DNA of 64,000 bases from Chloroflexota bacterium. Its GTDB lineage: Bacteria; Chloroflexota; Dehalococcoidia; Lucifugimonadales; UBA3495. Numbering within the stretch: the stretch's first letter is position 1; the number at the start of each line of letters is the position of its first letter. The notes under the pieces were generated by a model, which had not been told where the DNA came from, ran no database searches, and saw only the letters and a program-made list of their open reading frames with translations. Location of the stretch: contig JAPPGG010000066.1 of the NCBI GenBank assembly GCA_028875055.1, forward strand, positions 62,001 through 126,000. Direction: 5' to 3'. The position numbers were made by a program, and so were the translations under genes. Shown in pieces: positions 2,790 to 61,010 of the stretch.

Positions 2790-2796
2790 ACTTGGT

Positions 2797-2816
2797 TGTG
2801 ATATACAGTATCATCA
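2797..2816. promoter_or_regulatory. Imperfect dyad at the predicted transcription start (candidate operator)
   Basis: GTGATATAC-A-GTATCATCAC is an imperfect palindrome right at the predicted start of the promoter at 2761-2789. Position and symmetry suggest a repressor site. No regulator gene is adjacent. Confidence 0.35.
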
Positions 2817-2858
2817 CATTATCAACTAGCGAGTTTTTGGAGAAAGGAGAGAGGAAAC

Positions 2859-3065
2859 ATGGCAGAATTCACCGCTTACAGCTTCAAGGCACGCCGGCAG
2901 GTCCCGGTCAACGACGTCAAGCTGGTACGCTACAAGAATGGGCGCTATGGCATACAGGGTCAGGCCGGCGAGGGTCCCGAGTGCGTAGTATCCAAGATGA
3001 TCAGCACCGCCCAGGCCGAGGAGATGCAGGCCGCAGGGTACGCGGTCAACGACATGTCCGGATAG
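2859..3065 (+). CDS. Small conserved-looking protein, degenerate zinc-ribbon (DUF5679-like)
   Basis: A 68-residue cytoplasmic protein with a clear ribosome site (GGAGAGAGGAAAC before the ATG) and a strong promoter. The frame AYSFKARRQV...VRYKNGR...QGQAG resembles, from memory, the small Chloroflexota DUF5679 zinc-ribbon proteins (AYCxKCR...KNGRPAxQG...CPxCG). Here the expected paired cysteines are Ser, Ala, Gly and one remaining Cys, so zinc binding is probably lost. The stop codon is followed at once by the open frame of the M16 peptidase, so the two are likely co-transcribed. Function unknown; family assignment tentative. Confidence 0.65.
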   Translation: MAEFTAYSFKARRQVPVNDVKLVRYKNGRYGIQGQAGEGPECVVSKMISTAQAEEMQAAGYAVNDMSG

Positions 3066-3149
3066 GTGGACGGCGATTACAACAGTGAGCAGGCCGGTTC
3101 CAGCAATGTAAGCTCGCGATCATTCCGCGATTATCCTTCCGAGGTACAG

Positions 3150-4424: not shown

Positions 4425-4505
4425 GTACGACTCCCTGTTCAACCGTGTCCGCGCCGGTTATCCAGATTACCCAATGCGTGTCCCAGGTAGAACCCTTCAA
4501 TAAAA

Positions 4506-4532
4506 TGGCCGCCCTCGAATCGGGGGCGGCCA
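4506..4532. terminator. Bidirectional terminator between convergent genes
   Basis: Stem TGGCCGCC / GGCGGCCA with T-rich flanks on both sides (ACTTTCTT on +, ATTTTATT on -). It sits between the M16 peptidase (+) and the LigB-type dioxygenase (-). Confidence 0.8.
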
Positions 4533-4563
4533 CTTTCTTGGGATCAGGGACGGGATGACCGGG

Positions 4564-5604
4564 CTACTTGAAAACGGCCAGGCACTTGGGGGCGTTGAAG
4601 CTCCAGCACTCGGCCCATTCCAGGTAGTCGGCATGGCGGTTCAGTTCGGCCATGGCGCCCACCAGGCACTGCCAGTTGAGGGTTTCCTGCTGGCCAGACT
4701 CCTCGACCTGGTGCAGGGTCCAGTTCTTCCAGATGTCGTACTCACCCTTGCGCAGGGCGTCCAGGAGCACGCGGTCGGCTTCCAGGTCGGGGTAAACCCA
4801 GCTGTTCTTTTCGGTCAGGAAGGCGTGGGACCAACTGGATGAAGCCATGAGCACTACCCGATAGGGGCTGTCAATCAGGGCGCGGGCGGTGGCCTGACCT
4901 ACCTCGAAACAGCGCGTCGGGGTGGGCGAAGGCGGGTCCAGTTCCTCCGCAAAGACTTCAGCGCCGCCGCGCATCCGGACGACGTTGCTGCCGTAGCAGT
5001 TAACCGCCATGGGGAGCACGGGATAGTTGAACCCCTTGCGGTCCAGGTCCAGGAACAGCAAGGTGTTGGCAAAGGCGTGTCCCAGGCCAGCCTTTTCGTG
5101 CAAGGGCTTGTAGGCGTAGGCCATATCGACGCCCTGCTCGATCAGCCGGCGAGTGAGATAGCGACCAGCGGCCTGATGGCCCGGCACACTGAAGACCTTG
5201 TCCTTTGGTTCGTCCCAAATGTTGGGCCTGTCCCCAATGCGGTGGTAGGGCTGGAAATCGATCTGATCGTAGGCCAGCACGCAGAAGGGAGGAATAATGT
5301 CCTCTCGGAAATTCTCGTACTGGTCGTCGCCCCAAAGCAGGATAAAGTCCGGATCGAAGGCGTCAATTTCCTCCCGAAGCTTTCGGAAGGCATCGAAGAC
5401 CTTGGCCCGGTGGGCCCGGTGAGCGGTTATCCCCTCATCGTCGCCCCACTCAGCCTGCATTTCGGCAGGCCAGTTGGCAGGGTTCTTCATTTCCTCAGGA
5501 ATCCGGTTGGTCTTGAGCATGCGGATAAGGGGCCACGGCTTGTATTCGTCGGGCACCAAACCAGGGGGATAGTGGGTTGCGCCGATACCAAGTATTTCTC
5601 CCAT
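4564..5604 (-). CDS. LigB-type (class III) extradiol ring-cleavage dioxygenase-like protein
   Basis: A 346-residue protein resembling the catalytic subunit of protocatechuate 4,5-dioxygenase-type enzymes, which use Fe(II) to open catecholic rings. Supporting segments are the N-terminal GIGATHYPPG, where the first iron His is expected, FDPDFILLWGDDQYENF, PVLPMAVNCYG, and the ASSSWSHAFL segment with a late His. ATG at 5604 is chosen because GGAGG lies 6 nt upstream; the longer frame to 5640 starts with TTG and has no site. No small LigA-like partner is adjacent, so it may act alone. Substrate unknown. Confidence 0.8.
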   Translation of the reverse strand: MGEILGIGATHYPPGLVPDEYKPWPLIRMLKTNRIPEEMKNPANWPAEMQAEWGDDEGITAHRAHRAKVFDAFRKLREEIDAFDPDFILLWGDDQYENFREDIIPPFCVLAYDQIDFQPYHRIGDRPNIWDEPKDKVFSVPGHQAAGRYLTRRLIEQGVDMAYAYKPLHEKAGLGHAFANTLLFLDLDRKGFNYPVLPMAVNCYGSNVVRMRGGAEVFAEELDPPSPTPTRCFEVGQATARALIDSPYRVVLMASSSWSHAFLTEKNSWVYPDLEADRVLLDALRKGEYDIWKNWTLHQVEESGQQETLNWQCLVGAMAELNRHADYLEWAECWSFNAPKCLAVFK

Positions 5605-5899
5605 AAAATCCTCCAACAGGGCGACTCCTTGCCCTCGCAATAGGTACGGCCATAGGTGTGTTGCTTCCGGAATTATAGGTTTGGCCGGACAGAGCAGTCA
5701 ACAGAGGCCAATCCAATTCAGGGTTCTTAAACTACTCAGCCGGACTCCCTTTTTTCATTGGCCGGGGCTAGTCAAAGGCCCCAGGTATCGTTCAACCGGC
5801 CTGGCATGGGCATTCCGCAGGAGAAAACCCCGAAAGGGAACCGGAGTCTTCCATAGACATTCGAGAGCTCCTGCAAGCCCATGCCTTAACTGCTGAAGT

Positions 5900-6298
5900 T
5901 CACACCCTTTCCTCAGGACTTATCAGACTCTCAGCTCTCGGCCGGTCCTCTGGCGACGTGGAAAGGGCAATGGTCGCGAACCCGTCCTTGCGGTCCAGGA
6001 TATGGGCGCTGCGAATATTGATGCCGGCCTCGCTGAAGCGTTGAGCCACTCGGGCCAGTGCGCCGGCCTCGTCTTTCAACCGTACCAGCAGGGCGTCATC
6101 GGTTACCGCGGAGTAGCCCGCATCCGCCAGGGCCGTTAGCGCCCGGTCTGTGTCGTCAGTGCTGATGATGATGGTGCCATGTTCTCCGTCAACCTGGGTG
6201 TTAATGGACTCCAGGTTGACGCTGGCCTGGGCCAGCGTGTTGGTAATGTCGGCAAGAACGCCCACTTCGTCGCGGGCCATAATGACTATGCGTTCCAA
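5900..6298 (-). CDS. Tandem ACT-domain protein
   Basis: A 132-residue protein made almost wholly of two ACT modules: residues 1-65 (IVIMARDEVGVLADITNTLA) and 68-130 (LLVRLKDEAGALARVAQRF...INIRSAHIL). ACT domains bind amino acids and usually regulate amino-acid enzymes. It starts with TTG at 6298, supported by GGAGGAG 5-6 nt upstream. It lies 44 nt downstream of the PLP decarboxylase gene on the same strand, so it may report the level of that enzyme's substrate or product. No catalytic domain is attached. Confidence 0.88.
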   Translation of the reverse strand: MERIVIMARDEVGVLADITNTLAQASVNLESINTQVDGEHGTIIISTDDTDRALTALADAGYSAVTDDALLVRLKDEAGALARVAQRFSEAGINIRSAHILDRKDGFATIALSTSPEDRPRAESLISPEERV

Positions 6299-6342
6299 TC
6301 AAACTCCTCCATTCCGATTGTGGATTTGGCGATCCGGCGACG

Positions 6343-7470
6343 TCAGCCCGCGATCTGGTCAGTCACGAGGCATTCGTCCACCAGCTGATCGACCAACTGG
6401 CGGGTTACGTGGGGCATGGCAATCAGGTGAGCAATGTCCCGATAGGGGGCCAGCTGCCACTTGCTGACAACTGCCGGGTCCGGCCTGGGGAAGACCACGG
6501 TCACCGAGTTGCGGTTGCGCCAGGCTGGAATGCCGCTGTCATTGAATCGTTGTACCGCGTACTCTGCCACAGACAGCATTTCGGCCACGACATCGGTCAG
6601 GCCTTCAACTCCGAGCCTCTCCAGCGCATACCACAAGACCAGGGGCGTCCAGGCATTTCGGGAACCGGGAATGGTGGTGTCCATTACCCCGACGTACTCC
6701 ACCGAGCGCGATATGCGGGCAACGTATTCCTTCCTGGTGAGGACGACGCCGCAGGGTATCGGAGAGCCAATCAACTTATGGCCACTGACGGCCAGACTGT
6801 CGGCGCCTTCGTCGAAACCGTAGGGCTGCGCGCCGGCGACAAAGGGGAGAATCATGCCGCTGAGGGCCGCATCCGAGTGGATGTATGACTGCCGGATGGC
6901 CAGGTCATCCAGAATCTGGCGCACCTTCCGAAGATCGTCCACTGCTCCCTTCATAGTGGTACCGATGTTGGCCATCATGATAACGGGAACATCGCGATTG
7001 ATGCGGATGGTCTCGTAAAGGTCTTCGTAGTCAATCTCGCCGTTATCAAGGCTCTTGATCATGATGTTGCGCATGTTCAGCACCTGCATGATCTTCAGGA
7101 TGCTGTAGTGCGTGTCCTGGGAGAAATAGACCACACCCTGGGGATGCAGTTCCCGGGCCATGTAGAGGCCGTACATGTTGCCCTCGGTGCCGCCCGTGGT
7201 CACATAACCCCAGGCATCGTCCGGGTCCAGGCGCATCAGGCTTGCGAAATTGCCTACCACTTCGCGTTCGAACTCGTGGCTGTTGACCCGGTAGTTGGTG
7301 CCGTGAAAGGGGTCGCCCACGTTGTTGGCATTGAACTGCAGGAAGGGCAGGATTTCGTCGTAATCAAAGTCAAAGTTGACCGGATAACCCAGGGCACAGG
7401 CGGAGGCTTCCTCATAAGTCTCCCACAAAGCATCCAACCGGGCTCTCGCTTCACTGGTCAATTCCTTCAT
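6343..7470 (-). CDS. PLP-dependent histidine (or serine) decarboxylase family protein
   Basis: A 375-residue group II PLP decarboxylase. Features: TTGGTEGNMYG (92-101) for the phosphate and ring region, H121 in SQDTHYS for ring stacking, HSDAAL with D200 pairing the pyridine nitrogen, and SGHKLIGSP with the Schiff-base K232. These are hallmarks of bacterial histidine decarboxylase and its plant serine-decarboxylase relatives, and the length is typical. The likely product is histamine or ethanolamine; which one cannot be told from sequence. GGGAGG sits about 10 nt before the ATG. The tandem ACT protein follows 44 nt downstream. Confidence 0.88.
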   Translation of the reverse strand: MKELTSEARARLDALWETYEEASACALGYPVNFDFDYDEILPFLQFNANNVGDPFHGTNYRVNSHEFEREVVGNFASLMRLDPDDAWGYVTTGGTEGNMYGLYMARELHPQGVVYFSQDTHYSILKIMQVLNMRNIMIKSLDNGEIDYEDLYETIRINRDVPVIMMANIGTTMKGAVDDLRKVRQILDDLAIRQSYIHSDAALSGMILPFVAGAQPYGFDEGADSLAVSGHKLIGSPIPCGVVLTRKEYVARISRSVEYVGVMDTTIPGSRNAWTPLVLWYALERLGVEGLTDVVAEMLSVAEYAVQRFNDSGIPAWRNRNSVTVVFPRPDPAVVSKWQLAPYRDIAHLIAMPHVTRQLVDQLVDECLVTDQIAG

Positions 7471-7717
7471 CGATTCACACCTCCCGTTCCCGAATTCCCC
7501 TCAGGGGATGCCGGACCACTATCGGCGGCCATCTTCCAATACCATTGTACCATCGGGTCAGCCCGGTTCTTTCGTCACGGTTAGGGCTTTCAATGGGCCC
7601 GGACGCGCAAGGCTAAAGATGCGTCCGGAGCCGCAAGGCGGGTTGCGTGGTATTATCTGGCCAGAACCCGCCGGGAAATGGAATCTTCCTGGAGAGTAGA
7701 GAGAGGAGCAGAAGCAA

Positions 7718-8137
7718 ATGTCGGAAAAACCCTTTATTGACTTTGACCAGGCCCAGGCAGCCATGAAGGCGATAATCGAAGAGGCGACCAAGCCCGGGGG
7801 AATGCCGGTGGCAATTTCGATAGTGGACGATGCGGGAAATATGGTGGCCTACGCCCAGATGGACCACGTCCGGCTGTACGCCCGACGCCACGCCTTCAGG
7901 AAAGCCTACACTGCGGCAATTATGGGCATGGACACGGGAGCTCACGGCGAGCAGCTTAAGGAACGGGGCCGCACCGTGAGCGATTACGGCGACCCCAGCC
8001 TGACTCCCGGGGAAGGCGGTGTGGTGGTCAAGTCCAGGGACGGAATAATCATGGGGGGAATCGGTGTGGGCGGCTACCTGATTCGGGACGAGGAACTGGC
8101 CATGATTGGCCTGAATGCGATGAACATTGGCGGCTGA
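7718..8137 (+). CDS. GlcG/HbpS-family (DUF336) heme-binding-like protein
   Basis: A 139-residue protein of the GlcG/HbpS family. Seen are the N-terminal FDQAQAAMKAIIEEA helix, ISIVDDAGNMVAYAQMD, AFRKAYTAA and the terminal GGIGVGGYLIRDEELA. Members are found beside glycolate, diol and aromatic catabolic genes and bind heme or small organics; the exact role is unsettled. AGAGAGGAGCAGAAGCAA precedes the ATG. No partner enzyme is directly adjacent; the next gene is a VOC protein 95 bases away. Confidence 0.88.
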   Translation: MSEKPFIDFDQAQAAMKAIIEEATKPGGMPVAISIVDDAGNMVAYAQMDHVRLYARRHAFRKAYTAAIMGMDTGAHGEQLKERGRTVSDYGDPSLTPGEGGVVVKSRDGIIMGGIGVGGYLIRDEELAMIGLNAMNIGG

Positions 8138-8232
8138 TTGACCGTAACCCTTGCCTGTAATATATTTCGTTTAACCATTCGGGGCAGGAAAGCGATGCTT
8201 TTGACCGAATACTTTCAGGAGAGGTGATTACC

Positions 8233-8634
8233 ATGCCGGAACGCAACCCTTATATGCCCACCTTTGCCAAGGGCAGCATTAAAGTCAGCATGATCCAGCA
8301 TACCAACGTGGAGACCAGCGACGTGCCCCGGAGCCAGGAGTGGTACGGCAAGGTGTTCGGCGCGGAGTGGACGGAAGACGGGCCGCGCTACCTGAAGATG
8401 GGGAACACGGAAGTGCACCTGCACATGGAAGCCAATCCGCAGCCTCATCCCACCAACCATTTTGCGGTGGAAGTGGAGGACTGGGACGCCTGGGTGTCCA
8501 ACCTCAACGAGGTGGGGGTCAACTTTGAGGCGGGCCGGGAGCCCAAGCTGAACGACAGTGGCAAGCTGGCCGGCTTTGTTCGCGACCCGGACGGCAACTT
8601 GATTGAGGTGATGTACCACGCCGAGTGGCACTAG
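8233..8634 (+). CDS. VOC-family (glyoxalase/bleomycin-resistance fold) protein
   Basis: A 133-residue single vicinal-oxygen-chelate protein. It begins a first beta-alpha-beta unit with SMIQHTNVETSDVPRSQEWYGKVFG and ends with FVRDPDGNLIEVMYH, giving candidate metal ligands His (IQHTN), His in TNHFAVEV and Glu in LIEVM. It might be an isomerase, lyase or dioxygenase-like enzyme. AGGAGAGG is 8 nt upstream of the ATG at 8233; a GTG at 8224 overlaps that site and is rejected. Confidence 0.88.
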   Translation: MPERNPYMPTFAKGSIKVSMIQHTNVETSDVPRSQEWYGKVFGAEWTEDGPRYLKMGNTEVHLHMEANPQPHPTNHFAVEVEDWDAWVSNLNEVGVNFEAGREPKLNDSGKLAGFVRDPDGNLIEVMYHAEWH

Positions 8635-8661
8635 AGTTCCAGAAACCTGTCCGAACGCGAG

Positions 8662-8700
8662 ACTCCCTCGGGGAAGCTGGTTCCCCGAGGGAGTTTTCTC
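8662..8700 (+). terminator. Strong intrinsic terminator
   Basis: A 14-bp perfect stem (8662-8675 with 8681-8694), 5-nt loop GCTGG, then TTTTCTC. It follows the VOC gene at 8233. Confidence 0.9.
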
Positions 8701-8748
8701 TGGTTTGCTGAGGCAAATCCGCAGTGGCGCCGCCGGAATGAAGGGCGG

Positions 8749-9036
8749 CTAGAGGCCCTCCGCGAATATGGCGTTGGTGGTAGCGGACTTGTGGCGCATT
8801 TCCTTGGGACCGGCGTACTCGTCAGAGTAATACCAGGCCTTGGCCTGCTCGACGCTGTCAAACTCCAGGATGACAAGTCGGCTGGGGCTCCAGTCGCCTT
8901 CCACGGTCTCGGTGCCTCCGCCGCGAACCACGTAGCGACCCCCGTAGGCTTCGATGGTCGCGCTGACCAGCTTGCGGTACTCCTCGAAACCCTCCGGGTC
9001 GGTAACCTTTACGTCAGCAATCATATAACCGGCCAT
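8749..9036 (-). CDS. DUF1330 family protein
   Basis: A 95-residue dimeric ferredoxin-fold protein of the DUF1330 family, shown by GYMIADVKVTDPEGFEEYRKL, YGGRYVVRGG, RLVILEFDSVEQAKAWYYSDEY. The family resembles NIPSNAP/EthD-like small proteins; no reaction is established. AAGGAG sits 6 nt before the ATG. It is downstream of and on the same strand as the DUF3500 gene (63-nt gap), so both may be on one transcript. Confidence 0.9.
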   Translation of the reverse strand: MAGYMIADVKVTDPEGFEEYRKLVSATIEAYGGRYVVRGGGTETVEGDWSPSRLVILEFDSVEQAKAWYYSDEYAGPKEMRHKSATTNAIFAEGL

Positions 9037-9099
9037 ATGGCGCTCCTTTGTATTGTAAACGGTTGAGTTCCCTGGGCGACCAGCGGGCGGGCTGAAGAA

Positions 9100-10275
9100 T
9101 CAGCCATGGGGATGGTGGTGCCGCTCCCGGTGCTGGCGAAGCAGGTCCTTCCCATAGTCGTTGCCGTTGGGCGTTCGCGCCACGGTATGAATGTGGTTTC
9201 GTGAGGGTTCGTCGTTGTCCAGGAAAATACCATTCTGGTGGTCGAACTCAATCAGAACCACGGGGCTGTGCACCCGATAGTAGAAGACGCTGTCTTCGTC
9301 GAAGCCACCCATCCAGGCAAAATGGGTCTCGCTGAGGTGCTGCCTGATCTCGTCCATCTTCAGCTGGGCGTGGTCGGAGCGCATGCGGTTGATGTAGGTC
9401 CCGATGAGGTCGAACATAAGCGCCTGCTGGTGACTGGAGAGGTCACCAAATTTGATGCCCTCGTAGCGCATCTCGAAATTATCACGGAAGGCCCCGGTGA
9501 AGACGCCGGAAGGCACTTCGTCGGAGACGGTGGCCTTGCTCCTCTGCTCAGCGGAGAAGGAACGGGCCAGGTTGAGGGCGATGCCCTCTTCGGCCCGGAA
9601 GACCCGGGTGCCGGCGTGCTTGCCGATGTCAACGGCCACGGGTTCCGAACCCATGAACATGGGAGTCATCACAATCTGGCCACCCACCAGGAAGCAGTTG
9701 ACGTTGAGGTGGTGGCCGTCGAACTGCCAGCCCCAGGGCCCTTCAGCAGAAGGGTCCCCAAAAACGCTCATCCAGTAGAGCCATTCGCCCAGTTCCTCGT
9801 CACTGCCGGTGATTTCGCGAATGGCCTCATTGAGTTTCATTATGTTGCGGGCCAGCTCAAAACCGGCGGGGCTGAAACTTTGGCGGAGCAGATCGAAAGT
9901 AAGGTCCCGCTGCTCCTGGGACATGGGCTCCATCATTGCGCCGTGACGCATGAGGAAAACGTGGATGTTGCTCCAACGGCGCCAGGCATCACTGTCCAGT
10001 TCGAAGCGGGCGACGGCTTTCTGCTCAGAATCCAGGGACTGGAGCCAGGAATTGGCGGCCCCGGTTATTCCTTCGTTGGAAAGGCCCGTATCCCACAGCG
10101 AATACAGCCCGGAGGATACATTTCCCTCGGTGGTAAGTCCCTTGAAAGGCTGGGCGATGTCCGCTTCAGCGTTGCGGAGGTTTGTGGCAAGCTGTTCCGG
10201 CATGTTCGGGTCCAGCCTTCGGCCGGAGACAACGGGACGGTTCCGTATCTTGAAATCCCGCAGAGTTAGTGTCAT
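9100..10275 (-). CDS. DUF3500 family protein
   Basis: A 391-residue protein matching, from memory, the DUF3500 family: QWFDGHHLN-like WGWQFDGHHLNVNCF, MTPMFMGSEPV, SRNHIHTVARTPNGNDYG. These proteins are common in catabolic bacteria and their reaction is unknown. The C-terminus is a basic His-rich tail (RQHRERHHHPHG) that could bind metal. ATG at 10275 is preferred because GAGGAG lies upstream; a longer frame to 10305 adds only MAIFLRRTTL and lacks a site. Confidence 0.82.
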   Translation of the reverse strand: MTLTLRDFKIRNRPVVSGRRLDPNMPEQLATNLRNAEADIAQPFKGLTTEGNVSSGLYSLWDTGLSNEGITGAANSWLQSLDSEQKAVARFELDSDAWRRWSNIHVFLMRHGAMMEPMSQEQRDLTFDLLRQSFSPAGFELARNIMKLNEAIREITGSDEELGEWLYWMSVFGDPSAEGPWGWQFDGHHLNVNCFLVGGQIVMTPMFMGSEPVAVDIGKHAGTRVFRAEEGIALNLARSFSAEQRSKATVSDEVPSGVFTGAFRDNFEMRYEGIKFGDLSSHQQALMFDLIGTYINRMRSDHAQLKMDEIRQHLSETHFAWMGGFDEDSVFYYRVHSPVVLIEFDHQNGIFLDNDEPSRNHIHTVARTPNGNDYGKDLLRQHRERHHHPHG

Positions 10276-10461
10276 CAGTGTCGTTCTCCTCAGGAAGATA
10301 GCCAATTATACTACGGAAACCGCTGAAGCAAGAATTGAGGTGGCACGGGAGGTCAGGCTTACATGCAGAGCCGACGGGAATTCGCGGGGGCACCCCTTGG
10401 GGTGGTCACTGCTATCATCCAAACCATGGGCAAGAGTGACGAAAGGGTATGCTGGCGCCAG

Positions 10462-11454
10462 TCACGGGTATTGGCTGCCGACGGCTTCAAGGTAGAGGGC
10501 ATACAGGGATTGGCTGCAGGCCATGAACAGCCGATTCCTCTGGAGGCCGCCGAAACACAGGTTGGCGCAGGGCTCGGGCAGGTGGATGCGGCCGATTAGC
10601 TCACCTCCCGAAGTGAAGCAGTGTACGCCATTGGAGCCAGGGCCGGCCCAACCGACAGCAGCCCACAGGTTGCCATCAACATCGGTGCGGAGGCCGTCGG
10701 CAAAACCCGGCTTGAAGTCGGCGAATACCCTGCCGCCGCTCAGGGATCCCCCTTTTTCAACGTCAAAGACACGGACATGCCCGGGAGCCTCCGGGTCGTG
10801 GGAACTGCCGCTGTCGGAAATGTACAGCCGGGACTCATCCGGGGAAAAACAGAGCCCGTTGGGTTTGACGAAGTCGTCGGCCGCCACGGAAGCTGAGCCC
10901 GTTGCGCAATCCAGGCGGTACACACGGGTGGGCAGCTCGGGTACCGCGCGCTGTCCCTCGTAGCCGACAAGGATTCCGTAGCCGGGGTCGGTGAACCAGA
11001 TTGTCCCATCGGACTGGACCACAACGTCGTTGGGCGCGTTGAGGCGCTTGCCATCGAAGCGGTCAATCAACACCGTTATGCTTCCGTCGTACTCGGTGCG
11101 GGTAACCCGGCGGGCGAGGTGTTCGCAGGAAACCAGACGCCCCTGCCGGTCCCTGGTGTTGCCATTGGCATTGTTGGAGGGCTGGCGGAAGACGGTCACT
11201 TCGTTGGTTGTTTCGCAGTATCGCAACATCCGGCTGTTGGGAATGTCGCTGAAGATGAGGGACCTGGAATCGCCGAACCACACGGGACCTTCGGCCCACC
11301 TGGTCCCGGTGAACAGGCGCTCTACCGCCGCATTGCCGTTGACGTATGCCAGGAACCGCGAATCCAGCGCTTCCACCGCCGGGTCGGGATAACGCACAAT
11401 GCCCTGGTCCCAGCGTCGCGCCAGTTCAGGGGTCCAGCCTGGTGTATCTCCCAT
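10462..11454 (-). CDS. SMP-30/gluconolactonase family protein
   Basis: A 330-residue six-bladed propeller lactonase, opening sugar lactones with a divalent metal. The metal-site elements are RWAEGPVW (Glu), RLNAPNDVVV (Asn), DDFVKPNGLCFSPDESRLYISDSG (Asn and neighbours) and PGFADGLRTDVDGNLW (catalytic Asp). No signal peptide. It is divergent from an aldehyde dehydrogenase of the ketoglutarate-semialdehyde type at 11793, a pairing that fits a non-phosphorylating sugar-acid pathway, though no sugar dehydrogenase or dehydratase is seen here. Confidence 0.9.
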   Translation of the reverse strand: MGDTPGWTPELARRWDQGIVRYPDPAVEALDSRFLAYVNGNAAVERLFTGTRWAEGPVWFGDSRSLIFSDIPNSRMLRYCETTNEVTVFRQPSNNANGNTRDRQGRLVSCEHLARRVTRTEYDGSITVLIDRFDGKRLNAPNDVVVQSDGTIWFTDPGYGILVGYEGQRAVPELPTRVYRLDCATGSASVAADDFVKPNGLCFSPDESRLYISDSGSSHDPEAPGHVRVFDVEKGGSLSGGRVFADFKPGFADGLRTDVDGNLWAAVGWAGPGSNGVHCFTSGGELIGRIHLPEPCANLCFGGLQRNRLFMACSQSLYALYLEAVGSQYP

Positions 11455-11792
11455 ATTTGCGTCCCCGCTTTCGTTGCCAAATTACGTTTCAGGTTTCCCC
11501 GGCAGGATTTTACACCCTGCCGGGCTGTCAGATGGCAAATTTCCAGCGGAGGTACACGGGGATCTTCGTTCACCGTGGAGGCCTTGACCCTGCTTGAACG
11601 GCGGGCCAAGTCTTGCACTGAGCTCCTGGGCCTCCCCTGGGGAGTCACTTTCACCCTGCGGCTCCCACCTCAAGGGGAGGGAAATAGCAAGAGGCCGGGC
11701 ATTCAGGTCACCTTGCCCCCTCAGGCCTCTGGTGGTAATTTACTCCGTAGCATTCAGCATTACGCAAACTTACCGGTACAAGAGGAAAACAA
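11455..11792. other. Divergent intergenic region with a hairpin
   Basis: The 338 bases between the lactonase (-) and the aldehyde dehydrogenase (+) contain a 9-bp inverted repeat, CCCGGCAGG / CCTGCCGGG (11498-11524, 9-nt loop), without a T-tract on either side, and the second copy of an 18-bp repeat (11573-11590). Promoters for both genes must lie here, but no consensus pair stands out. Confidence 0.5.
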
Positions 11793-13289
11793 ATGGCTTC
11801 AACGCAGGGTACTACCTATCGCAACTATATCGGCGGCCAGTGGGTCGAGTCCGTGTCCGGCCGTACCTATCCGGTGGCCAATCCGGCCCACAAAGGAACG
11901 GTCCTGGGCGAGTTTCAGACTTCCACTCCCGAGGACGCGCTTAATGCGGTGGCCGCCGCCAAGGAGGCGCTGGAAGGGTGGGCGAACACGCCGGCGCCGG
12001 CCCGCGCCCAGGTCCTGTTCCGGGCCCTGGAGATTATGGGACGTCGCAGCGACGAACTGGCGCGAACCATCACCGAGGAAGAGGGCAAGCCCCTACCCGA
12101 CGCCCAGGGCGAAGTACGGCGGGCCATGAATATCATCGAATATGCCGCCGGCGAGGGACGCCGGATGTTTGGCTACACCACCCCGTCCGAACTGCCCAGC
12201 ACGGTGGCCTACACCGTTCGGAGGCCACTGGGGGTGGTCGCCATCATTACACCCTGGAACTTCCCCATCGCGATTCCGGCCTGGAAGATGGCTCCCGCCC
12301 TCATCTGCGGCAACGCCCTTATCTTCAAGCCGGCCTCCATCACCCCGCTCAGCGCCGTTAAGCTGACCGAGGTTTTCGAGGAAGCCGGGCTGCCCGCGGG
12401 CGTCCTTAACCTCATTACCGGCCCTGGCGGGTCGGTAGGTAATGCGCTGGTGGAAAGCCCGGATGTCAATGGCATTTCCTTTACCGGTTCCACCGAAATC
12501 GGCACCGGCATTTACGCGGAGGGAGCCCAGCGGTTGAAGAAAGTCCAGTGCGAAATGGGCGGCAAGAACGCCGTCATCCTGCTGGCCGACGCCGACCTGG
12601 ATAAGGCCCTGGGCGGCATTGTTCAGGGAGCCTTCGGCTCTACCGGTCAGCGATGCACCGCCACCAGCCGGGTCATCGTCGAAGAGGGCGTGTACGACAC
12701 TTTCATGGAGCAGTTGATAGACCGCACTTCCCGGCTGAAGGTAGGCGACGGCCTGGCGCCGGACACCGACGTCAGCCCCCTGTCCAGCCAGTCCCAGCTG
12801 GATACGGTCCTGAATTACATCGGGATTGGCGCGGAGGAAGGCGCTCACCTGGCCTTCGGCGGCCACGCCCTTTCCGGCGGTGAATTTGACGAGGGCTACT
12901 ACGTGGAGCCCACCATTTTCACCGACTGTACGCCCGATATGCGCATCTCCCAGGAAGAAATTTTTGGGCCGGTGCTGACGGTTTTCAAGGCCAGGGACCT
13001 GGAGGACGCCGTTGAGATTTCCAACAGCGTCAAATTTGGCCTGTCGTCCTCGGTTTACACCCGCGACCTGCCCCGGGCTTACAGGTACATCAATACCGTG
13101 GAAGCCGGCATGGTCCACGTCAACGCCCCTACCCTGGGCGGCGAGGTACACCTGCCCTTTGGAGGCCTGAAGGCATCCGGAGTGGGCCAGCGTGAACAGG
13201 GAGTGGAAGCGGTGGATTTCTTCAGCGAGGTCATCACCGTATATATCGATTACGCAGATTCGGCAAGGTCGCAGGCACGCTTCATTTAG
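11793..13289 (+). CDS. Aldehyde dehydrogenase (ketoglutarate-semialdehyde / succinate-semialdehyde type)
   Basis: A full-length 498-residue ALDH. Elements in order: YIGGQWV start, ITPWNFP oxyanion Asn, FTGSTEIG nucleotide-binding loop, CEMGGKN with general-base Glu, TGQRCTATS with nucleophile Cys, EEIFGPVL, and HLPFGGLKASGVG. The GQRCTATSR and VHVN...PFGG features fit 2,5-dioxopentanoate or semialdehyde dehydrogenases more than betaine-type ones. AGAGGAAAACAA precedes the ATG. The next gene starts at the base after its stop. Divergent from the SMP-30 lactonase. Confidence 0.94.
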   Translation: MASTQGTTYRNYIGGQWVESVSGRTYPVANPAHKGTVLGEFQTSTPEDALNAVAAAKEALEGWANTPAPARAQVLFRALEIMGRRSDELARTITEEEGKPLPDAQGEVRRAMNIIEYAAGEGRRMFGYTTPSELPSTVAYTVRRPLGVVAIITPWNFPIAIPAWKMAPALICGNALIFKPASITPLSAVKLTEVFEEAGLPAGVLNLITGPGGSVGNALVESPDVNGISFTGSTEIGTGIYAEGAQRLKKVQCEMGGKNAVILLADADLDKALGGIVQGAFGSTGQRCTATSRVIVEEGVYDTFMEQLIDRTSRLKVGDGLAPDTDVSPLSSQSQLDTVLNYIGIGAEEGAHLAFGGHALSGGEFDEGYYVEPTIFTDCTPDMRISQEEIFGPVLTVFKARDLEDAVEISNSVKFGLSSSVYTRDLPRAYRYINTVEAGMVHVNAPTLGGEVHLPFGGLKASGVGQREQGVEAVDFFSEVITVYIDYADSARSQARFI

Positions 13290-55396: not shown

Positions 55397-57151
55397 TTAA
55401 CCCCGGCCTGCGCCAGAGGGCGCCTCCAGCCCGAACAGGCCGAAAAGCTCCCTGGCGGTAAGGACCGAGGAGAGGTCGATGGACACATCATCCACCAACT
55501 CGTCGAACAGCTCCTGCTTTCGCTCCAGGATACGGTCAATCCGCTCCTCAATGGTATTGACGCAGGAATACTTGAACACATGCACCGGTACAGTCTGGCC
55601 AAAGCGGTGGCTGCGGTCCTCGGCCTGACGTTCCACCGCCGGATTCCACCAGCGGTCCAGGTGGAAAACATAGGAGGCCTCCTGGAGGTTCAGACCCACC
55701 CCGCCGGCCCGCAGCGACACCACCAGTACCTTGTGCTCGTCATTCCCCCGGAACCTGTCGATGACATCCCGACGCTCTTCAGGAGACTGGGCGCCGGTGA
55801 AGGTCAGGGGTCGAAAGTCGCGCAGCGCATCGGCCACCGCCTCCACGCCGAAGCCCGACGCCCGGTACTGGGAAAAAACCAAAGCCCGGTTTCCTTCTGC
55901 CGCCAGGGTCTCAATCCTGCCGCGAATCTCCTCGAACTTGGCGGACTCGCCGGTTTCGGGCTCGGCGTTGCAAATCTGCTTCAGGCGGGTTATAAGTTCC
56001 AGTACATGCTGAACCCTGACCTCGCGGCCCAATTCCGTGAGGTGGACGATGCCTTCTTGTTCCGCCCGGTCATAGCTGCGACGCTGTGAAGCTCCCAACT
56101 CGACCGGAATTTTGGCCACCATCTTGGGAGGCAAATCTTCCAGCACTTCCTCTTTCCTCCTCCGCAACTGCAACTCTCGGTGCCGCTTCCTCAGAACAGG
56201 TCCGGCCGAGTACCTCCTGGGACTCTCCGCCTCTCCGTGGTCAACGAACTCCATGATGGAGGCCAATTCCTCCTCGTCATTCTCGACAGGAGTACCCGTC
56301 AGCGCCCACGAGCGCCGGCGCTTGAGGCCTTTAACCGCGTCGCTGGTGGAATTGCGGTTCTTTATGCGCTGGGCCTCATCGGAAACCACCACGTCCCAGG
56401 TCTTGCGGCCAAGGGCGGAGGAGGGACTGCCGCCGAAGTCGGAGCGCAGGGTATCGTAGCTGACCAGGGTTACGTGCACCGGGGTATCCCACTGCCACCT
56501 CCGGTCTGCGGCGGACCCGCGAACGATCATGGCCGTCAGGTCGGGCGCCCACTTCAGCAGCTCGCGCCGCCACTGGTCCAGGACGCTGGCCGGGGCGACC
56601 ACCAAGGCCGACTGGATTTCACCCCCCAGGAAGAGGACCCGGAGGGCCACGATTACCTGCAGGGTCTTGCCAAGGCCCATATCATCAGCCAGCAGGATGC
56701 GATCACTCTCCAAAAGGACCTGAACGCCCTCCTCCTGGAATGGCATTAGACCTGGGCGGCTGTCGCTGTCCAGAACCGGGGGCGGCAGCAGGGGCAAATG
56801 GGGAGACTTCAACGCCCGCCGCAGCCGGAATATTAGGCTCTCCGGAGAGGGCACGCTTCTCCGGCGAGACTGCCCAGTGGTTGAAGAAGCGCCCGCCTGG
56901 GTAGCAGCGCCGACGGCAGAGGGGGCTGGGCCATCGAAGATGAAGGTCCTGACCGCTTCCGCTGCTGTCATCGGAGCAGCCGGAAGCCAGGCCACGGGTT
57001 CCGGCTGGATTTCGGAGGGTTGGTATAGGGGGAAGCCGGAGGTGTAGGGGGCAGGCGCTTCGCGAATCACCGCGCGGCTGCCTTCCTGGTGGCGCCAATT
57101 CCGGCCCAGGTTCAAGACCTTCAACTTGTGCAGCCAGGCGCGAAGCATCAT
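55397..57151 (-). CDS. SNF2-family helicase/translocase
   Basis: A 584-residue superfamily 2 ATPase. Residues 1-130 are an unmatched region with a Pro/Ala/Ser-rich part. Core: LLADDMGLGKT (Walker A, to residue 163), VVVSDEAQRIKN (DEAQ, 258-261), WALTGTPVEN (motif III), and the C-terminal lobe FSQYRASGFG, SLRAGGVGLNLQEAS, DRWWNPAVERQAEDRSHRFGQ. It would move on double-stranded DNA. No nuclease, methylase or bromo-like domain is attached. Its ATG overlaps the stop of the preceding gene (ATGA), so it is the last gene of the five-gene operon. Confidence 0.93.
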   Translation of the reverse strand: MMLRAWLHKLKVLNLGRNWRHQEGSRAVIREAPAPYTSGFPLYQPSEIQPEPVAWLPAAPMTAAEAVRTFIFDGPAPSAVGAATQAGASSTTGQSRRRSVPSPESLIFRLRRALKSPHLPLLPPPVLDSDSRPGLMPFQEEGVQVLLESDRILLADDMGLGKTLQVIVALRVLFLGGEIQSALVVAPASVLDQWRRELLKWAPDLTAMIVRGSAADRRWQWDTPVHVTLVSYDTLRSDFGGSPSSALGRKTWDVVVSDEAQRIKNRNSTSDAVKGLKRRRSWALTGTPVENDEEELASIMEFVDHGEAESPRRYSAGPVLRKRHRELQLRRRKEEVLEDLPPKMVAKIPVELGASQRRSYDRAEQEGIVHLTELGREVRVQHVLELITRLKQICNAEPETGESAKFEEIRGRIETLAAEGNRALVFSQYRASGFGVEAVADALRDFRPLTFTGAQSPEERRDVIDRFRGNDEHKVLVVSLRAGGVGLNLQEASYVFHLDRWWNPAVERQAEDRSHRFGQTVPVHVFKYSCVNTIEERIDRILERKQELFDELVDDVSIDLSSVLTARELFGLFGLEAPSGAGRG

Positions 57152-57639
57152 CCGTGGGCGTAGGCCTCCTCCAGCCCTGAGGCAGCCCGCTCAAAGGGTT
57201 CCAGAAGCCGGCCGCGGGACGTCAGCAACTTAAGCAGGGCGGCCAGCGAGGACTCTGGTTCCGTTCCCAGCCAGCTAACCGGCGGGTCCACCGCACCGTC
57301 AACCAGGCCAACCGCATACCGGACCGGGGGTCCAGACGAGAAAAGGTCGGGGGGCGCCTCGTCCGCCAGGACCAGCGCCAAATCAAGAGGATGCTTGACC
57401 GCTTCAAACAGGGCCAAGGCCAGGACAGCTACAGCGCGCCGGTGCGCGGCATCGAGTCCCCACAACGCGCCGGATGGCAGGTCCGCCCGCGTATAACAGA
57501 ATTCCAGGGGTTCGCCGTGGCAATTGGTAACGAGCAGAGCGGCCCGTACACCGGACCCTTCTTCCTCCACGAGAAAGCGCAGGTGGGCGAGGTTGGCAGC
57601 GGCCCAGTCTTCCATGGAGTACCCAGGCTGAATGGACAA
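57148..57639 (-). CDS. Unknown protein of the ATPase/helicase operon
   Basis: A 163-residue acidic, Leu/Ala-rich cytoplasmic protein I do not recognise. It has helices and a central hydrophobic stretch (RRAVAVLALALFEAVKHPLDLALVLAD) but no membrane helix and no metal or nucleotide motif. It starts with TTG at 57639, 9 nt after the ATPase stop; ATG at 57615 (MEDWAAANLAH) is an alternative. It overlaps the helicase start by 4 nt. Position between ATPase and helicase suggests a linking subunit. Confidence 0.75.
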   Translation of the reverse strand: MSIQPGYSMEDWAAANLAHLRFLVEEEGSGVRAALLVTNCHGEPLEFCYTRADLPSGALWGLDAAHRRAVAVLALALFEAVKHPLDLALVLADEAPPDLFSSGPPVRYAVGLVDGAVDPPVSWLGTEPESSLAALLKLLTSRGRLLEPFERAASGLEEAYAHG

Positions 57640-57648
57640 ACCCCGCGC

Positions 57649-58932
57649 TTACTCCCCGTCCGTGCTGGAGCCGTTTTCTTCCGAGTGGGCCTTCTCCAGG
57701 GTCGTATCCTCCTCGTACCTGAAGGTCAGCTCCGTATCCTCGATTTCCGGCTCGGTTTCCGGATACAACCGTCGCAGGTCCCACTCGTTAATCCAGCGGC
57801 GGACATAGCGCCGTATGCTGGCGGGCACGCCGCGCCCCACGCCATGGTCTATTTCGGGAGCATCCCAACCGTACGCATCTGAATGAATAGTCCTGAGCTG
57901 GCGGTAGAGGTTTAACAACATTTCTTCATCAGGCTCAGCCAGGTGGCAGACTCCCCGCTCCAGAAAGCGCATTCCAGACTCGGCCCTGGCCGCGGTCAGC
58001 AGGTCTGCTTCCCGTCCCCGGGCCCGCAGGCGGGGCACAGCCTTGTCCCGGTCCTCCTTGCTGTCCAGAACTTGCTCGGGAAGGTCGGCGGTCATGGTGC
58101 CAACCACCACCAACCCCGGGTACTTTTCCTCCGGGGTTTGCCCCATCCAGCGGGCCAACTCGGCGTAGGAGCGGGCCCGTTGCAGGACGCTGTAATTGGC
58201 CACCAGTTCGATTTCGTCCAGCAGGACCACCCAGCCGCAATATCCGGCCGCCTTGATGAGTTCGAGGACGAACCGGAGCCTCTGCGGGGGCATATCCCGG
58301 TACACCGGTGCGCGGAAGGAATGGACCTGGTGCAAACCCCAGTGGCGCAGTCCATCTCGCACATTCTTGAGCTGGATGCGCTCGCCGGACCAGAACCAGT
58401 TGATCTCATTCAAAAGCTGGGGTTCATTGTCATTTTCGTGGACGGCCAGGGTGGCCGGCAGAATTCGGTGGAGGCCGTTGTCCTCCCGGTTGGCCCACTG
58501 GAAGAACTGGGCATAGCCAGGGGAGTCATAGTCCAGTTTCTGGGCAATTTCCTCCACCATCTGTCCGGTCAGGCCGGGCACTCTGCCCTTTTCCACCACG
58601 GCTCGATAGACCTTATCCATGTCGAACAGGGGCGTTTCTTTGCTGATCACCACCCGGCTGCACACGAAGTTCCGCTCCAGGGCCCGGTTCTCCAGGTAGC
58701 CCAGAAGGTGGGACTTGCCGCTGCCAAAGTCGCCGGCCACCAGCATTCCCTGGCCGCCCTCCGGACCACCTCCCTCCTCGGAGAGTCGGGTTAGCATTTC
58801 GTTGAACACGCGTTCGACCTCGGGCTGGCTGCATCCCAATGCGTCAACCGCGTCGCCGTTGGGGACGCCGTTCCGCAGGGCCTCCAGCGCCCTGCGGTTG
58901 TTTACCCTTGCGCTTGCTGTTGTAGCTGCCAT
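57649..58932 (-). CDS. BrxC/BrxD-like (DUF2791) P-loop ATPase
   Basis: A 427-residue AAA-type ATPase. It starts with RRALEALRNGVPN, the hallmark of the DUF2791 / BREX BrxD family, then GDFGSGKSH (Walker A, 67-75), WVVLLDEIE (Walker B, 235-241) and VVVGTMTAD (sensor 1, 275-283). A C-terminal Arg-rich helix (RRYVRRWINEWDLRRL) could carry a winged-helix-like element. In BREX, such ATPases work with helicases. GGAG lies 7 nt before the ATG; the preceding gene ends at the base before it (TAG-ATG). No BrxA, BrxB, PglX or PglZ is nearby. Confidence 0.88.
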   Translation of the reverse strand: MAATTASARVNNRRALEALRNGVPNGDAVDALGCSQPEVERVFNEMLTRLSEEGGGPEGGQGMLVAGDFGSGKSHLLGYLENRALERNFVCSRVVISKETPLFDMDKVYRAVVEKGRVPGLTGQMVEEIAQKLDYDSPGYAQFFQWANREDNGLHRILPATLAVHENDNEPQLLNEINWFWSGERIQLKNVRDGLRHWGLHQVHSFRAPVYRDMPPQRLRFVLELIKAAGYCGWVVLLDEIELVANYSVLQRARSYAELARWMGQTPEEKYPGLVVVGTMTADLPEQVLDSKEDRDKAVPRLRARGREADLLTAARAESGMRFLERGVCHLAEPDEEMLLNLYRQLRTIHSDAYGWDAPEIDHGVGRGVPASIRRYVRRWINEWDLRRLYPETEPEIEDTELTFRYEEDTTLEKAHSEENGSSTDGE

Positions 58933-59916
58933 CTAATTCTCCGCGAAGGGCCCGTCGGACAGTCGGACCAGGGTTGCCAGGGGATTGGCCTGGGACCGGG
59001 ACCGGACTTCGTCGGCAATACGGCTCATGAGAGCCTGGTATATTGAGAAGCCCTTGCCCCGGATGTCATCGTCCAGGAAGTCCTCGCCATTCAGTACCAC
59101 CAGCAGCAATCCCTCAAGGCGGTCGGTGCCGTCAATCAACTCCCGAAGCAGTTCGTAGTGGTCCATGACGGCGGAACGGGTGTAGAAGCGCAGCCCGTCC
59201 CGGGGATTTCGACGCAGCGTCACCCGATTATCGTCCAGCAATATGCAGGCGCCCGGGTAGCCCACGAAGCGAATCCAGTAAAGGAGGGATTCAAGGAAGT
59301 GCCGGGCGTTGGTACGGGCAATACTGTTGTAAATGCCGTAGCGCCGGACGCTGCCGACGCGTCGGTTGGCGCCGGTCAGCCATTCCAGGAGCGGTGTTTC
59401 ATCGCGACTCTGGCCGCCGGCCCCCATTTCGGCGAGACATAGGTGCGTCATCGCCGCGCGAAAGTCTCGGGACATACCTGCATTGCGAAAGACGGTGTTC
59501 TCTATTAGAGGACGCAAGTCCTGAAGAATGAAGCTCTCACTCAGGCCACTGGCGTCACCAAGGGCTTTAAGCACCGATGTATCGGCCTCGAGATTCACGG
59601 CGTCAGTCCGGTATCCCAGCTTGCCTGCCTGGCCCAGAACCACTTCTCTCGCCAGCAAACGCCAGTCAATCTGCTCGGCAATGCGATAGAAGAAATCCTG
59701 GAACATGTGGACCCTTGTCTCACCAGCATCGACCCTTACAACCAGATACCGCTGCTCTGCCGCAACCTCGGTGAGGCGAGTAGTCAGCAATGGAGTCAAG
59801 TCCGGCCGCTGGGACACGATAAATTTTACCGACGCCCCGCCCTCGCTGATGAATCCATCCAGGTACTCAGTCCTGATGGTATCCAGCCATTCCTGCACGG
59901 CAAGGTTGTTTGTCAT
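58933..59916 (-). CDS. Degenerate BrxC/BrxD-like ATPase partner (no Walker A)
   Basis: A 327-residue paralog-like partner of the next gene's ATPase. Its layout matches: VKFIVSQRPDLTPLLTTRL takes the place of the Walker A strand-loop-helix but lacks GKS; ACILLDDNRV (223-232) takes the Walker B place with Asp-Asp rather than Asp-Glu; LLVVLNGEDF (271-280) takes the sensor-1 place. So it should fold like an AAA ATPase without hydrolysis. Its start overlaps the previous stop (ATGA at 59913-59916) and its stop abuts the next ATG, showing tight coupling. A structural or DNA-recognition subunit is likely. Confidence 0.75.
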   Translation of the reverse strand: MTNNLAVQEWLDTIRTEYLDGFISEGGASVKFIVSQRPDLTPLLTTRLTEVAAEQRYLVVRVDAGETRVHMFQDFFYRIAEQIDWRLLAREVVLGQAGKLGYRTDAVNLEADTSVLKALGDASGLSESFILQDLRPLIENTVFRNAGMSRDFRAAMTHLCLAEMGAGGQSRDETPLLEWLTGANRRVGSVRRYGIYNSIARTNARHFLESLLYWIRFVGYPGACILLDDNRVTLRRNPRDGLRFYTRSAVMDHYELLRELIDGTDRLEGLLLVVLNGEDFLDDDIRGKGFSIYQALMSRIADEVRSRSQANPLATLVRLSDGPFAEN

Positions 59917-60716
59917 CGACTTACTCCCGTGAACTGGATGCCGTAGAACAGGACAGTTTCACCCTCCGGCCCCACGAAGGAAATTACCCCTTGTGGGGTC
60001 CGGGTGCCGGTGGATGCGGGGAAAGACACCCGAGCGCCATCACGAACTTCCCGGGCGCCACTTTCCTGCAGCGCGTAGAGATCCCTGGCGAAGTCTATAC
60101 GGGTGTAATCCCGGTCGCTGCCGGGAAGCCCGGTAAAGAGCCGGTAGATGCGTTCCAGGCGAACCACCTGGCCGGTATCGCCCAACTTGAGCCGGTCGGC
60201 GGTATCCCGTTCCGCCAGTTCGAGGTACGCGCGGTACAGGGACTCCAGGAATTGCTGGGGTCGGAACCGGGAAGGACGGTTTTGGAGTTTCTCCAGGTCC
60301 GACACCAGCCTGGTAGGTCGGATGTTGGAAGACTGGCGACGGTCAATGCGCACGGCACGATCCCCGGGCAGCACCCGTACCACCAGCGGGTGGGCAATAA
60401 TGCGGCCGTCCCGCTGGAACATCCGGACGCCGCCGGATTCGGCCTGGGTCTGCAACTCCGAACTATATTCGCTCTCCAGGTACTGCCGCTCCTCTTCAGC
60501 AGTGAATGGCCAGGCCGTGGCGGCATTGGCTGCTTCCTGCCGGATGAGGTTGACCAGGGGATCCAGCCTTTCGCTGAGGCGTCGCACCGCCGCGATGTTC
60601 CCGTCCTGGCTGGCCTTGCGCAACTGTCGGGTTAACTTAGTTGCCTCGCTCAAAGCGTAGAGCACGGAGTCGGCAGCGTTCTCGGCCGCCACAAATCCTT
60701 CCTCAAAAGTGGGCAT
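59913..60716 (-). CDS. Unknown protein, first gene of the ATPase/helicase operon
   Basis: A 267-residue protein. Residues 1-75 are helical (AADSVLYALSEATKLTRQLRKA, then RLSERLDPLVNLI), probably a coiled coil. Residues 100-190 are basic and mixed (RRQSSNIRPTRLVSDLEKL), perhaps winged-helix-like, and the C-terminal 60 residues are beta-rich (GVISFVGPEGETVLFYGIQF). No catalytic motif is seen. ATG at 60716 has GGAGG four bases upstream; upstream frame to 60848 has no conserved look. No consensus promoter was found before it. Perhaps a DNA-binding or assembly subunit. Confidence 0.75.
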   Translation of the reverse strand: MPTFEEGFVAAENAADSVLYALSEATKLTRQLRKASQDGNIAAVRRLSERLDPLVNLIRQEAANAATAWPFTAEEERQYLESEYSSELQTQAESGGVRMFQRDGRIIAHPLVVRVLPGDRAVRIDRRQSSNIRPTRLVSDLEKLQNRPSRFRPQQFLESLYRAYLELAERDTADRLKLGDTGQVVRLERIYRLFTGLPGSDRDYTRIDFARDLYALQESGAREVRDGARVSFPASTGTRTPQGVISFVGPEGETVLFYGIQFTGVSR

Positions 60717-60923: not shown

Positions 60924-61010
60924 TTCCCCCGCCAGCCTCGCCGGTTTCCGGCCTACGCCGGAATGACGAGTTTCTGGCCTCCGCGAGTATCAACTCTGAA
61001 GCGTTACCTC
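60924..61010 (+). repeat. Intergenic repeat R1, copy C (partial)
   Basis: CCGGCCTACGCCGGAATGAC, then GAGTTTCTGGCCTCCGCGAG and TATCAACT, matching the right half of 29752-29880. Confidence 0.7.

What the first reader, a model, noticed from the sequence alone, without database searches (positions are those of the whole stretch)
55397..60716. Five-gene operon pairing two BrxC/BrxD-like ATPases with an SNF2 translocase: possible undescribed DNA-defence or DNA-maintenance system
Seen: five genes on one strand with overlaps or gaps of 9 nt or less (ATGA at 59913-59916, TAG-ATG at 58932, 9 nt at 57640, ATGA at 57148-57151). They encode a helical unknown, a Walker-less AAA-like protein, an intact DUF2791/BrxD-like ATPase, a 163-residue unknown and an SNF2 helicase. 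Known: BrxC/BrxD-family ATPases are parts of BREX and related defence. Inference: this is a compact ATP-driven DNA-sensing machine lacking the methylase and phosphatase of BREX, either a minimal defence system or a chromosome-handling complex. Its neighbours on both sides are gene-poor regions with dispersed repeats.
Basis: partly seen in the sequence, partly recalled or inferred. Interest (0 to 1): 0.88.

Follow-up and report, generated by a model that had tools for sequence, protein, structure and literature searches.

The report
Five-gene ATPase–SNF2 translocase operon
A compact set of five bacterial genes, found intact in scattered species of many phyla but not in any curated catalogue we could search, seems to build an ATP-driven machine that loads a DNA-pumping motor onto DNA, most likely to recognise and disable invading DNA, although this has not been tested.

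Summary
Five genes at 60716-55397 (-) overlap or nearly touch: g1 (267 aa, no known family), g2 (BrxD-like, P-loop lost), g3 (intact BrxC/D-type ORC/Cdc6-like ATPase), g4 (163 aa), g5 (SNF2). They recur together. In 74/74 loci with enough upstream sequence g1-g2-g3 are adjacent; 47/73 loci with enough downstream sequence also carry g4-g5 (23 as two genes, 24 fused). An independent g1 search gave 16/16 real hits followed by g2. The core trio also occurs without g4-g5. Distribution is patchy (13/250 genomes of the order) and phylogenetically scattered, indicating transfer; it was absent from the plasmid, phage and viral-contig collections. New: g4 is predicted to have an RNase H fold (EndoV/UvrC/PIWI type) without the first-strand catalytic Asp, so probably inactive; a divergent relative keeps a P-loop in g2. 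No PglZ or TerB exists in the genome, so it is not BREX or Shango. Defence is the best reading (about 0.55): kinship to defence ATPases and helicases, transfer, and some loci abutting McrBC, Zac or BREX-related genes. But defence neighbours are not clearly enriched over random regions. Undescribed in the libraries and open papers searched.

The parts
59913..60716 (-). g1, 267 aa: N-terminal helical hairpin plus C-terminal alpha+beta region (winged-helix-like by eye, inference); proposed DNA-binding/adapter subunit
   Evidence: conserved family of 62 aligned homologues; AlphaFold2 pLDDT 91; no Pfam/NCBIfam/PADLOC match; no convincing PDB fold match
58933..59916 (-). g2, 327 aa: BrxD-like AAA+ paralogue that has lost the P-loop; the preceding GGxxxK strand and the Walker B aspartate are kept
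   Evidence: PF10923 45 bits; G26, G27 and K31 invariant in 63/63; 0/63 with a P-loop; divergent relative L226 keeps GRPGSGKT at this site; hhalign to the g3 family E=0.0014, probability 17.6%, GKSHLL aligned to DLTPLL
57649..58932 (-). g3, 427 aa: intact BrxC/BrxD-family (ORC/Cdc6-like) AAA+ ATPase, P-loop GDFGSGKSH, Walker B LLDEIE
   Evidence: PF10923 87 bits, NF033438 BrxD 79.5 bits against a cut-off of 350; P-loop kept in 77/78 homologues
57148..57639 (-). g4, 163 aa (TTG start): predicted RNase H fold (EndoV/UvrC/PIWI type), probably catalytically dead; fused to the N-terminus of g5 in 24 of 47 loci
   Evidence: AlphaFold2 pLDDT 87; Foldseek best hit E. coli EndoV E=4.8e-5; VIA Z 12.0 to 2qh9_A, rmsd 3.3 over 137; Z 10.9 to T. 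maritima EndoV, rmsd 3.6 over 143; no conserved acidic residue in strand 1; fusion counts
55397..57151 (-). g5, 584 aa: SNF2/Rad54-type dsDNA translocase with intact helicase motifs (DDMGLGKT, DEAQ, LTGTPVEN, QAEDRSHRFGQ)
   Evidence: PF00176 154 bits, PF00271 67 bits; closest solved structure the archaeal Rad54-like 1Z63, E=5.8e-55; best PADLOC match ZorD, helicase part only

Best explanation
A nucleoprotein machine of the 'ORC/Cdc6-like ATPase plus SF2 motor' kind. g2 (ATPase-dead) and g3 (active) pair into a hetero-oligomeric AAA+ ring or clamp that g1 targets to DNA. ATP binding by g3 lets this core recognise a DNA feature (free end, junction, unusual modification or replication intermediate) and recruit or switch on the g4-g5 translocase. 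g4, a dead RNase H-fold domain, contacts nucleic acid or couples the loader to the motor. The motor pumps along dsDNA, strips or blocks proteins on it, and stalls invading DNA or hands it to a nuclease encoded elsewhere. Most likely role: defence against invading DNA. Shown: the genes, their obligate linkage, intact and lost motifs, modularity, scattered inheritance. Predicted: the g4 and g1 folds. Inferred: complex formation, loading, target recognition and defence.
For: Obligate co-inheritance of g1-g2-g3 in 74/74 loci and from an independent g1 search, 16/16 with g2. g4-g5 adjacency and fusion in 24 loci. Intact ATPase and translocase motifs. The ATPase family belongs to defence systems: BREX BrxD and Shango SngB are its matches, and a 2026 study proposes that BrxD loads the BrxHI helicase (PMC12839542). 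Patchy, scattered inheritance: 13/250 genomes of the order, 17/400 in the phylum, Chloroflexota label forced into at least 7 changes on the tree. Defence genes abut some copies: McrB-McrC after the trio in L027, ZacA-ZacB 51 nt after g5 in L049, DUF1156 and a second SNF2 protein upstream of g1 in L102, HNH_2 near Caldilineaceae copies.
Against: Most neighbours are housekeeping genes. Strict PADLOC matches near the system are not clearly more than in random regions of some of the genomes. No match in 72,556 plasmids, 50,697 phages or IMG/VR, though these host phyla are poorly covered there. No intact nuclease or other killing domain was recognised in the five proteins. The trio persists without g4-g5, notably in an Acidobacteriota clade, which a pure motor-effector model does not explain.
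Confidence: 0.55

Rival explanations
1. A chromosome-handling accessory complex: the trio is a DNA-bound AAA+ switch and g4-g5 a Rad54/RapA-like remodeller that clears stalled proteins, R-loops or recombination intermediates; the RNase H-fold domain senses RNA:DNA or damaged DNA.
For: SNF2 core closest to Rad54-like 1Z63 among solved structures; g4 fold shared with the repair enzymes EndoV and UvrC; housekeeping surroundings and no clear defence enrichment; trio-only copies in a largely Acidobacteriota clade; not found on plasmids or phages.
Against: Present in only about 4-5% of genomes of the order and phylum and not detected in congener G002; scattered inheritance across phyla; the ATPase is closest to defence families in the curated libraries.
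Confidence: 0.3
2. A degenerate or partial BREX (type 2 BrxD-BrxHI dyad) or Shango locus.
For: g2 and g3 match BrxD and SngB models.
Against: No PglZ anywhere in the genome, no TerB; the BrxHI motor is Ski2-like (PMC12839542) whereas g5 is SNF2; BrxD score 79.5 against a curated cut-off of 350; g1 and g4 have no counterpart; the set is intact and conserved rather than decaying.
Confidence: 0.07
3. The trio is a self-contained regulator or sensor (STAND-like) with varied outputs, and g4-g5 or McrBC are alternative effectors.
For: 23 of 73 loci lack g4-g5, and g4 is absent from nearly all of those genomes tested; one locus has McrBC instead.
Against: Only one McrBC case; g4-g5 is by far the commonest partner (47/73); most trio-only loci have no obvious effector downstream.
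Confidence: 0.08

Closest known systems
BREX type 2 BrxD-BrxHI dyad
   Same: ORC/Cdc6-like PF10923 ATPase adjacent to an SF2 motor; a loader-motor relation has been proposed (PMC12839542)
   Different: Here two ATPase paralogues (one dead) plus g1 and g4, an SNF2 rather than Ski2-like motor, and no PglX, PglZ, BrxC or PglW beside it
Shango (SngA TerB, SngB ATPase, SngC helicase)
   Same: A small operon of accessory protein, PF10923-family ATPase and helicase; experimentally anti-phage (PMC10250203)
   Different: No TerB, a different helicase family, an extra pseudo-ATPase and an RNase H-fold subunit
BREX-related (BR) systems with SNF2 helicases
   Same: ATPase plus SNF2 motor logic
   Different: No DUF499 ATPase, methyltransferase or nuclease in this operon; in L102 such genes merely lie next door
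TALON/TOTE helicases with inactivated RNase H-fold domains
   Same: A dead RNase H-fold domain attached to a defence-type SF2 helicase (PMC12458937)
   Different: YprA-family helicases, C-terminal fusion; here SNF2, N-terminal fusion or separate gene
Zorya ZorD and the SCO1167/SCO6262 helicase family
   Same: Closest curated models to the g5 helicase core
   Different: Score far below NCBIfam family cut-offs; no ZorABC; their N-terminal regions are not matched

Membership tests
BREX (type 2) | PglZ/BrxZ present | tested here: not met
   No PF08665 match in the whole genome (98% complete)
BREX (type 2) | BrxD ATPase at family cut-off | tested here: not met
   g3 79.5 bits and g2 44.3 bits against a 350-bit cut-off; superfamily membership PF10923 is met
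BREX (type 2) | PglX methyltransferase in the locus | tested here: not met
   None of the five proteins matches a methyltransferase model; no such ORF recognised within 53-63 kb
BREX (type 2) | BrxHI (Ski2/Lhr-like) helicase | tested here: not met
   g5 is SNF2; partial BrxHI/BrxHII model matches at 80 bits or less, against 267 bits for ZorD
Shango | SngA TerB-domain protein | tested here: not met
   No PF05099 in the genome; g1 has no PADLOC match
Shango | SngB-family ATPase | tested here: inconclusive
   g3 matches the SngB model at 34.9 bits, a superfamily-level score
Shango | SngC helicase | tested here: inconclusive
   Not among the 25 best PADLOC families shown for g5; 41 families matched
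BrxC/BrxD (PF10923) ATPase superfamily | Pfam match over cut-off with intact P-loop and Walker B | tested here: met
   g3 87 bits against 22.2; motifs conserved
Endonuclease V / UvrC nucleases | RNase H fold | tested here: met
   on a predicted model; no sequence-profile support (hhalign probability 0.1%)
Endonuclease V / UvrC nucleases | Catalytic aspartate of strand 1 | tested here: not met
   Position 21 and its neighbours hold R/K and hydrophobics in 49 homologues; EndoV (AGVD) and UvrC (YDIS) sequences from relatives keep the Asp
Anti-phage defence system (any) | Protection against phage or plasmid | not testable with these tools
   Needs an experiment

The most novel reading that the evidence does not exclude
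A previously undescribed anti-invader system that needs neither DNA modification nor a nuclease of its own: a heteromeric live/dead ORC-like ATPase pair, targeted by a new DNA-binding-type protein, loads an SNF2 translocase carrying a dead RNase H-fold sensor onto foreign DNA and inactivates it by translocation alone.
Probability: 0.3. Interest if true: 0.82.

Novelty: new variant of a known kind. Interest (0 to 1): 0.62.

Why it matters
It is a clean, minimal and recurrent case of an ORC/Cdc6-like ATPase pair obligately tied to a third protein and commonly to a dsDNA motor. The role of BrxD-type ATPases in BREX and Shango is unresolved; a five-gene, modification-free version would make the helicase-loader hypothesis directly testable. 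It also adds two uncatalogued protein families (g1, g4) and a live/dead ATPase pairing with a candidate less-derived relative in hand (L226/L228).

Tried and rejected
(1) A named system: PADLOC 2023, NCBIfam 2026 and Pfam gave only superfamily-level matches; g1 and g4 matched nothing. (2) BREX or Shango remnant: no PglZ or TerB in the genome. (3) g4 as an active EndoV/UvrC nuclease: fold yes, catalytic Asp no; profile-profile comparison gave no support. (4) g1 fold: no PDB match beyond generic helical hairpins, which does not show that the fold is new. (5) Defence-island enrichment: near, far and random protein sets compared in PADLOC; the tool tallies families, not genes, and its lists are truncated, so no formal test is possible; difference small. 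(6) Plasmid, phage and viral-contig searches: nothing. (7) g4 in trans in genomes that lack adjacent g4-g5: 2 of 25, one of them weak. (8) Recurrent neighbour families: generic SDR and ABC proteins dominate. (9) An 'empty site' in a congener: G002 lacks the system but the flanks are rearranged, so no precise insertion boundary could be read. (10) PDC-M23B tally of three near genes: at least two were DEAD/DSHCT helicases in Nitrospira, not a specific partner.

Full report
Observation. The five genes and their junctions are exactly as described. g1 starts at the ATG at 60716 behind a strong Shine-Dalgarno sequence. g3 matches PF10923 (BrxC_BrxD) at 87 bits with an intact P-loop; g2 matches at 45 bits; g5 matches SNF2-rel_dom at 154 bits and Helicase_C at 67 bits; g1 and g4 match nothing in Pfam, NCBIfam or PADLOC, even when 62 and 49 homologues were scanned one by one against Pfam. 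The G+C content of the operon (62%) is like its surroundings. g5 is under purifying selection against a congener (dN/dS about 0.21; the neighbouring ABC-F gene 0.07).

Recurrence. Searching relatives of the window genome found the same five genes in the same order in six other genomes of the family and order. A genome-collection scan with a g3 profile gave 301 relatives; the best 80 were taken with flanks. They come from Chloroflexota, Acidobacteriota, Pseudomonadota, Nitrospirota, Bacillota, Thermodesulfobacteriota, Myxococcota and single members of several other phyla. After removal of duplicates, g1 and g2 lie directly upstream of g3 in 74 of 74 loci with enough upstream sequence. g4 and g5 lie downstream in 47 of 73 with enough downstream sequence: 23 as two genes and 24 as one fused gene. 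44 of 67 loci with both flanks have all five. An independent search of 400 phylum genomes with g1 alone gave 17 hits; the 16 real ones all have g2 next, and g3 wherever the fetched stretch reached it. So g1-g2-g3 is an obligate trio, and g4-g5 is a commonly attached module. In 25 genomes holding trios without adjacent g4-g5, g4 was found in trans in two at most, one of them weakly.

The proteins. g2 has no P-loop in any of 63 homologues, but keeps invariant G26, G27 and K31 and a near-invariant Walker B aspartate. Profile comparison (E=0.0014, but hhalign probability only 17.6%) aligns its residues with g3 from the P-loop onward, GKSHLL against DLTPLL. A divergent trio from another Chloroflexota genome (L226/L228) carries GRPGSGKT at exactly this site in its g2, directly after the IKFVV strand, so the dead subunit is most simply read as a former live one (direction of change inferred). 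g4 was modelled at pLDDT 87. Foldseek's best hits are Endonuclease V and UvrC (EndoV E=4.8e-5). VIA-align gives Z 12.0 (rmsd 3.3, 137 aligned) to 2qh9_A, 10-11 to many EndoV structures and about 9-10 to UvrC and PIWI domains. In the alignment of 49 homologues strand 1 holds R/K where nucleases of this fold have Asp; only E94 and E147 are invariantly acidic. EndoV and UvrC sequences fetched from relatives keep the Asp, and profile-profile comparison with them finds no sequence kinship. So g4 is an RNase H-fold domain by predicted structure only, probably not a nuclease. g1 was modelled at pLDDT 91: a long helical hairpin (4-66), then an alpha+beta half that looks winged-helix-like by eye (inference); PDB searches matched only generic helical hairpins. 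g5 is closest among solved structures to an archaeal Rad54-like translocase.

Distribution and inheritance. 13 of 250 genomes in the order carry the g3 family, and 17 of 400 drawn from the phylum match g1. No g3 was found in four congeners, but one of them (G003) carries g5 and the end of g4 at 95% identity on a contig that breaks inside g4, so that zero understates presence within the genus. On the g3 tree the phylum labels need 23 changes against a minimum of 12; Chloroflexota alone is forced into at least seven changes by well-supported branches. This is a quick tree without bootstraps, and phylum names follow MAG titles, but repeated transfer is the simplest reading. No match occurs in the plasmid, phage and IMG/VR collections, which sample these hosts thinly.

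Is it defence? For: the ATPase family's characterised members sit in defence systems (BrxD, SngB); transfer and patchiness; and individual loci in which defence genes abut the system. L027 has the trio followed by McrB and McrC in place of g4-g5. L049 has ZacA-ZacB starting 51 nt after g5. L102 has a DUF1156 protein and a second SNF2 protein just upstream of g1. Some Caldilineaceae copies have an HNH_2 gene close by. The window's own genome also has, on another contig, DruA-DruE followed by two tandem live BrxD-like ATPases: the same 'ATPase pair plus SF2 motor' theme. Against: most neighbours are housekeeping genes, and the PADLOC tally for near neighbours does not clearly exceed far neighbours or random regions. 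I therefore put defence at about 0.55 and a chromosome-handling role at 0.3.

Mechanism (inferred). g2 and g3 would form a hetero-oligomeric AAA+ assembly in which only g3 hydrolyses ATP, as in ORC-type loaders (established knowledge of the family). g1 would provide DNA contact. The assembly would license the g4-g5 SNF2 motor, with the dead RNase H domain as nucleic-acid reader or coupling piece, given its frequent N-terminal fusion to the motor. A 2026 survey of BREX makes the same loader proposal for BrxD and BrxHI (PMC12839542), and inactivated RNase H-fold domains are reported fused to TALON defence helicases (PMC12458937). No nuclease or other effector domain was recognised, so the outcome would be translocation-based interference or hand-over to a nuclease elsewhere.

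Comparison with the known. It is not BREX (no PglZ in the genome; BrxD score far under the cut-off) and not Shango (no TerB; Shango described in PMC10250203). The passages read in the BREX survey, which defines new BREX-related systems, describe no such set; six literature searches in open papers found nothing else. Subscription papers and preprints outside the library could not be searched, and a cluster of this kind might sit unnamed in a machine-learning list of candidate defence genes. I rate it a new variant of a known kind: the ATPase-motor logic is known, while this composition, the live/dead ATPase pair and the g1 and g4 families are not in the curated sets consulted.

Noticed in passing
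L022 (G000:C42:29000-48000), 593-12872: Elsewhere in the same genome: DruA and DruE (Druantia) followed by two tandem live BrxD-like ATPases (438 and 402 aa), then AAA_21 + DUF3226 genes on the other strand: a second ATPase-pair plus SF2-motor arrangement.
   Followed up: partly
L228:10131-13438 (G408:C112): Divergent trio in which the g2 paralogue still has a P-loop (GRPGSGKT): candidate less-derived state of the live/dead ATPase pair.
   Followed up: partly
L027:9442-13757: g1-g2-g3 followed by McrB-like AAA_5 and McrC in place of g4-g5, in a genome of the same family.
   Followed up: partly
L049:11371-20495: g4-g5 followed after 51 nt by ZacA (DUF6361) and ZacB and a further 1111-aa protein; a DUF262-like gene (by eye) lies upstream.
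   Followed up: partly
window 60946-60963: Palindromic dispersed repeat TTCCGGCGTAGGCCGGAA in the spacer between the operon and the ABC-F gene; 9 matches in the window with up to 3 mismatches against 0.4 expected.
   Followed up: no
L147 (G003:C9:1-7252): A congener carries g5 and the end of g4 at about 95% nucleotide identity next to the same molybdenum-hydroxylase genes, but its ABC-F gene has a different upstream neighbour, so the locus is rearranged within the genus.
   Followed up: partly
L031: A locus with two g1-like ORFs (306 and 417 aa) upstream of g2-g3 and no g4-g5; the same genome has another g3 homologue in L032.
   Followed up: no
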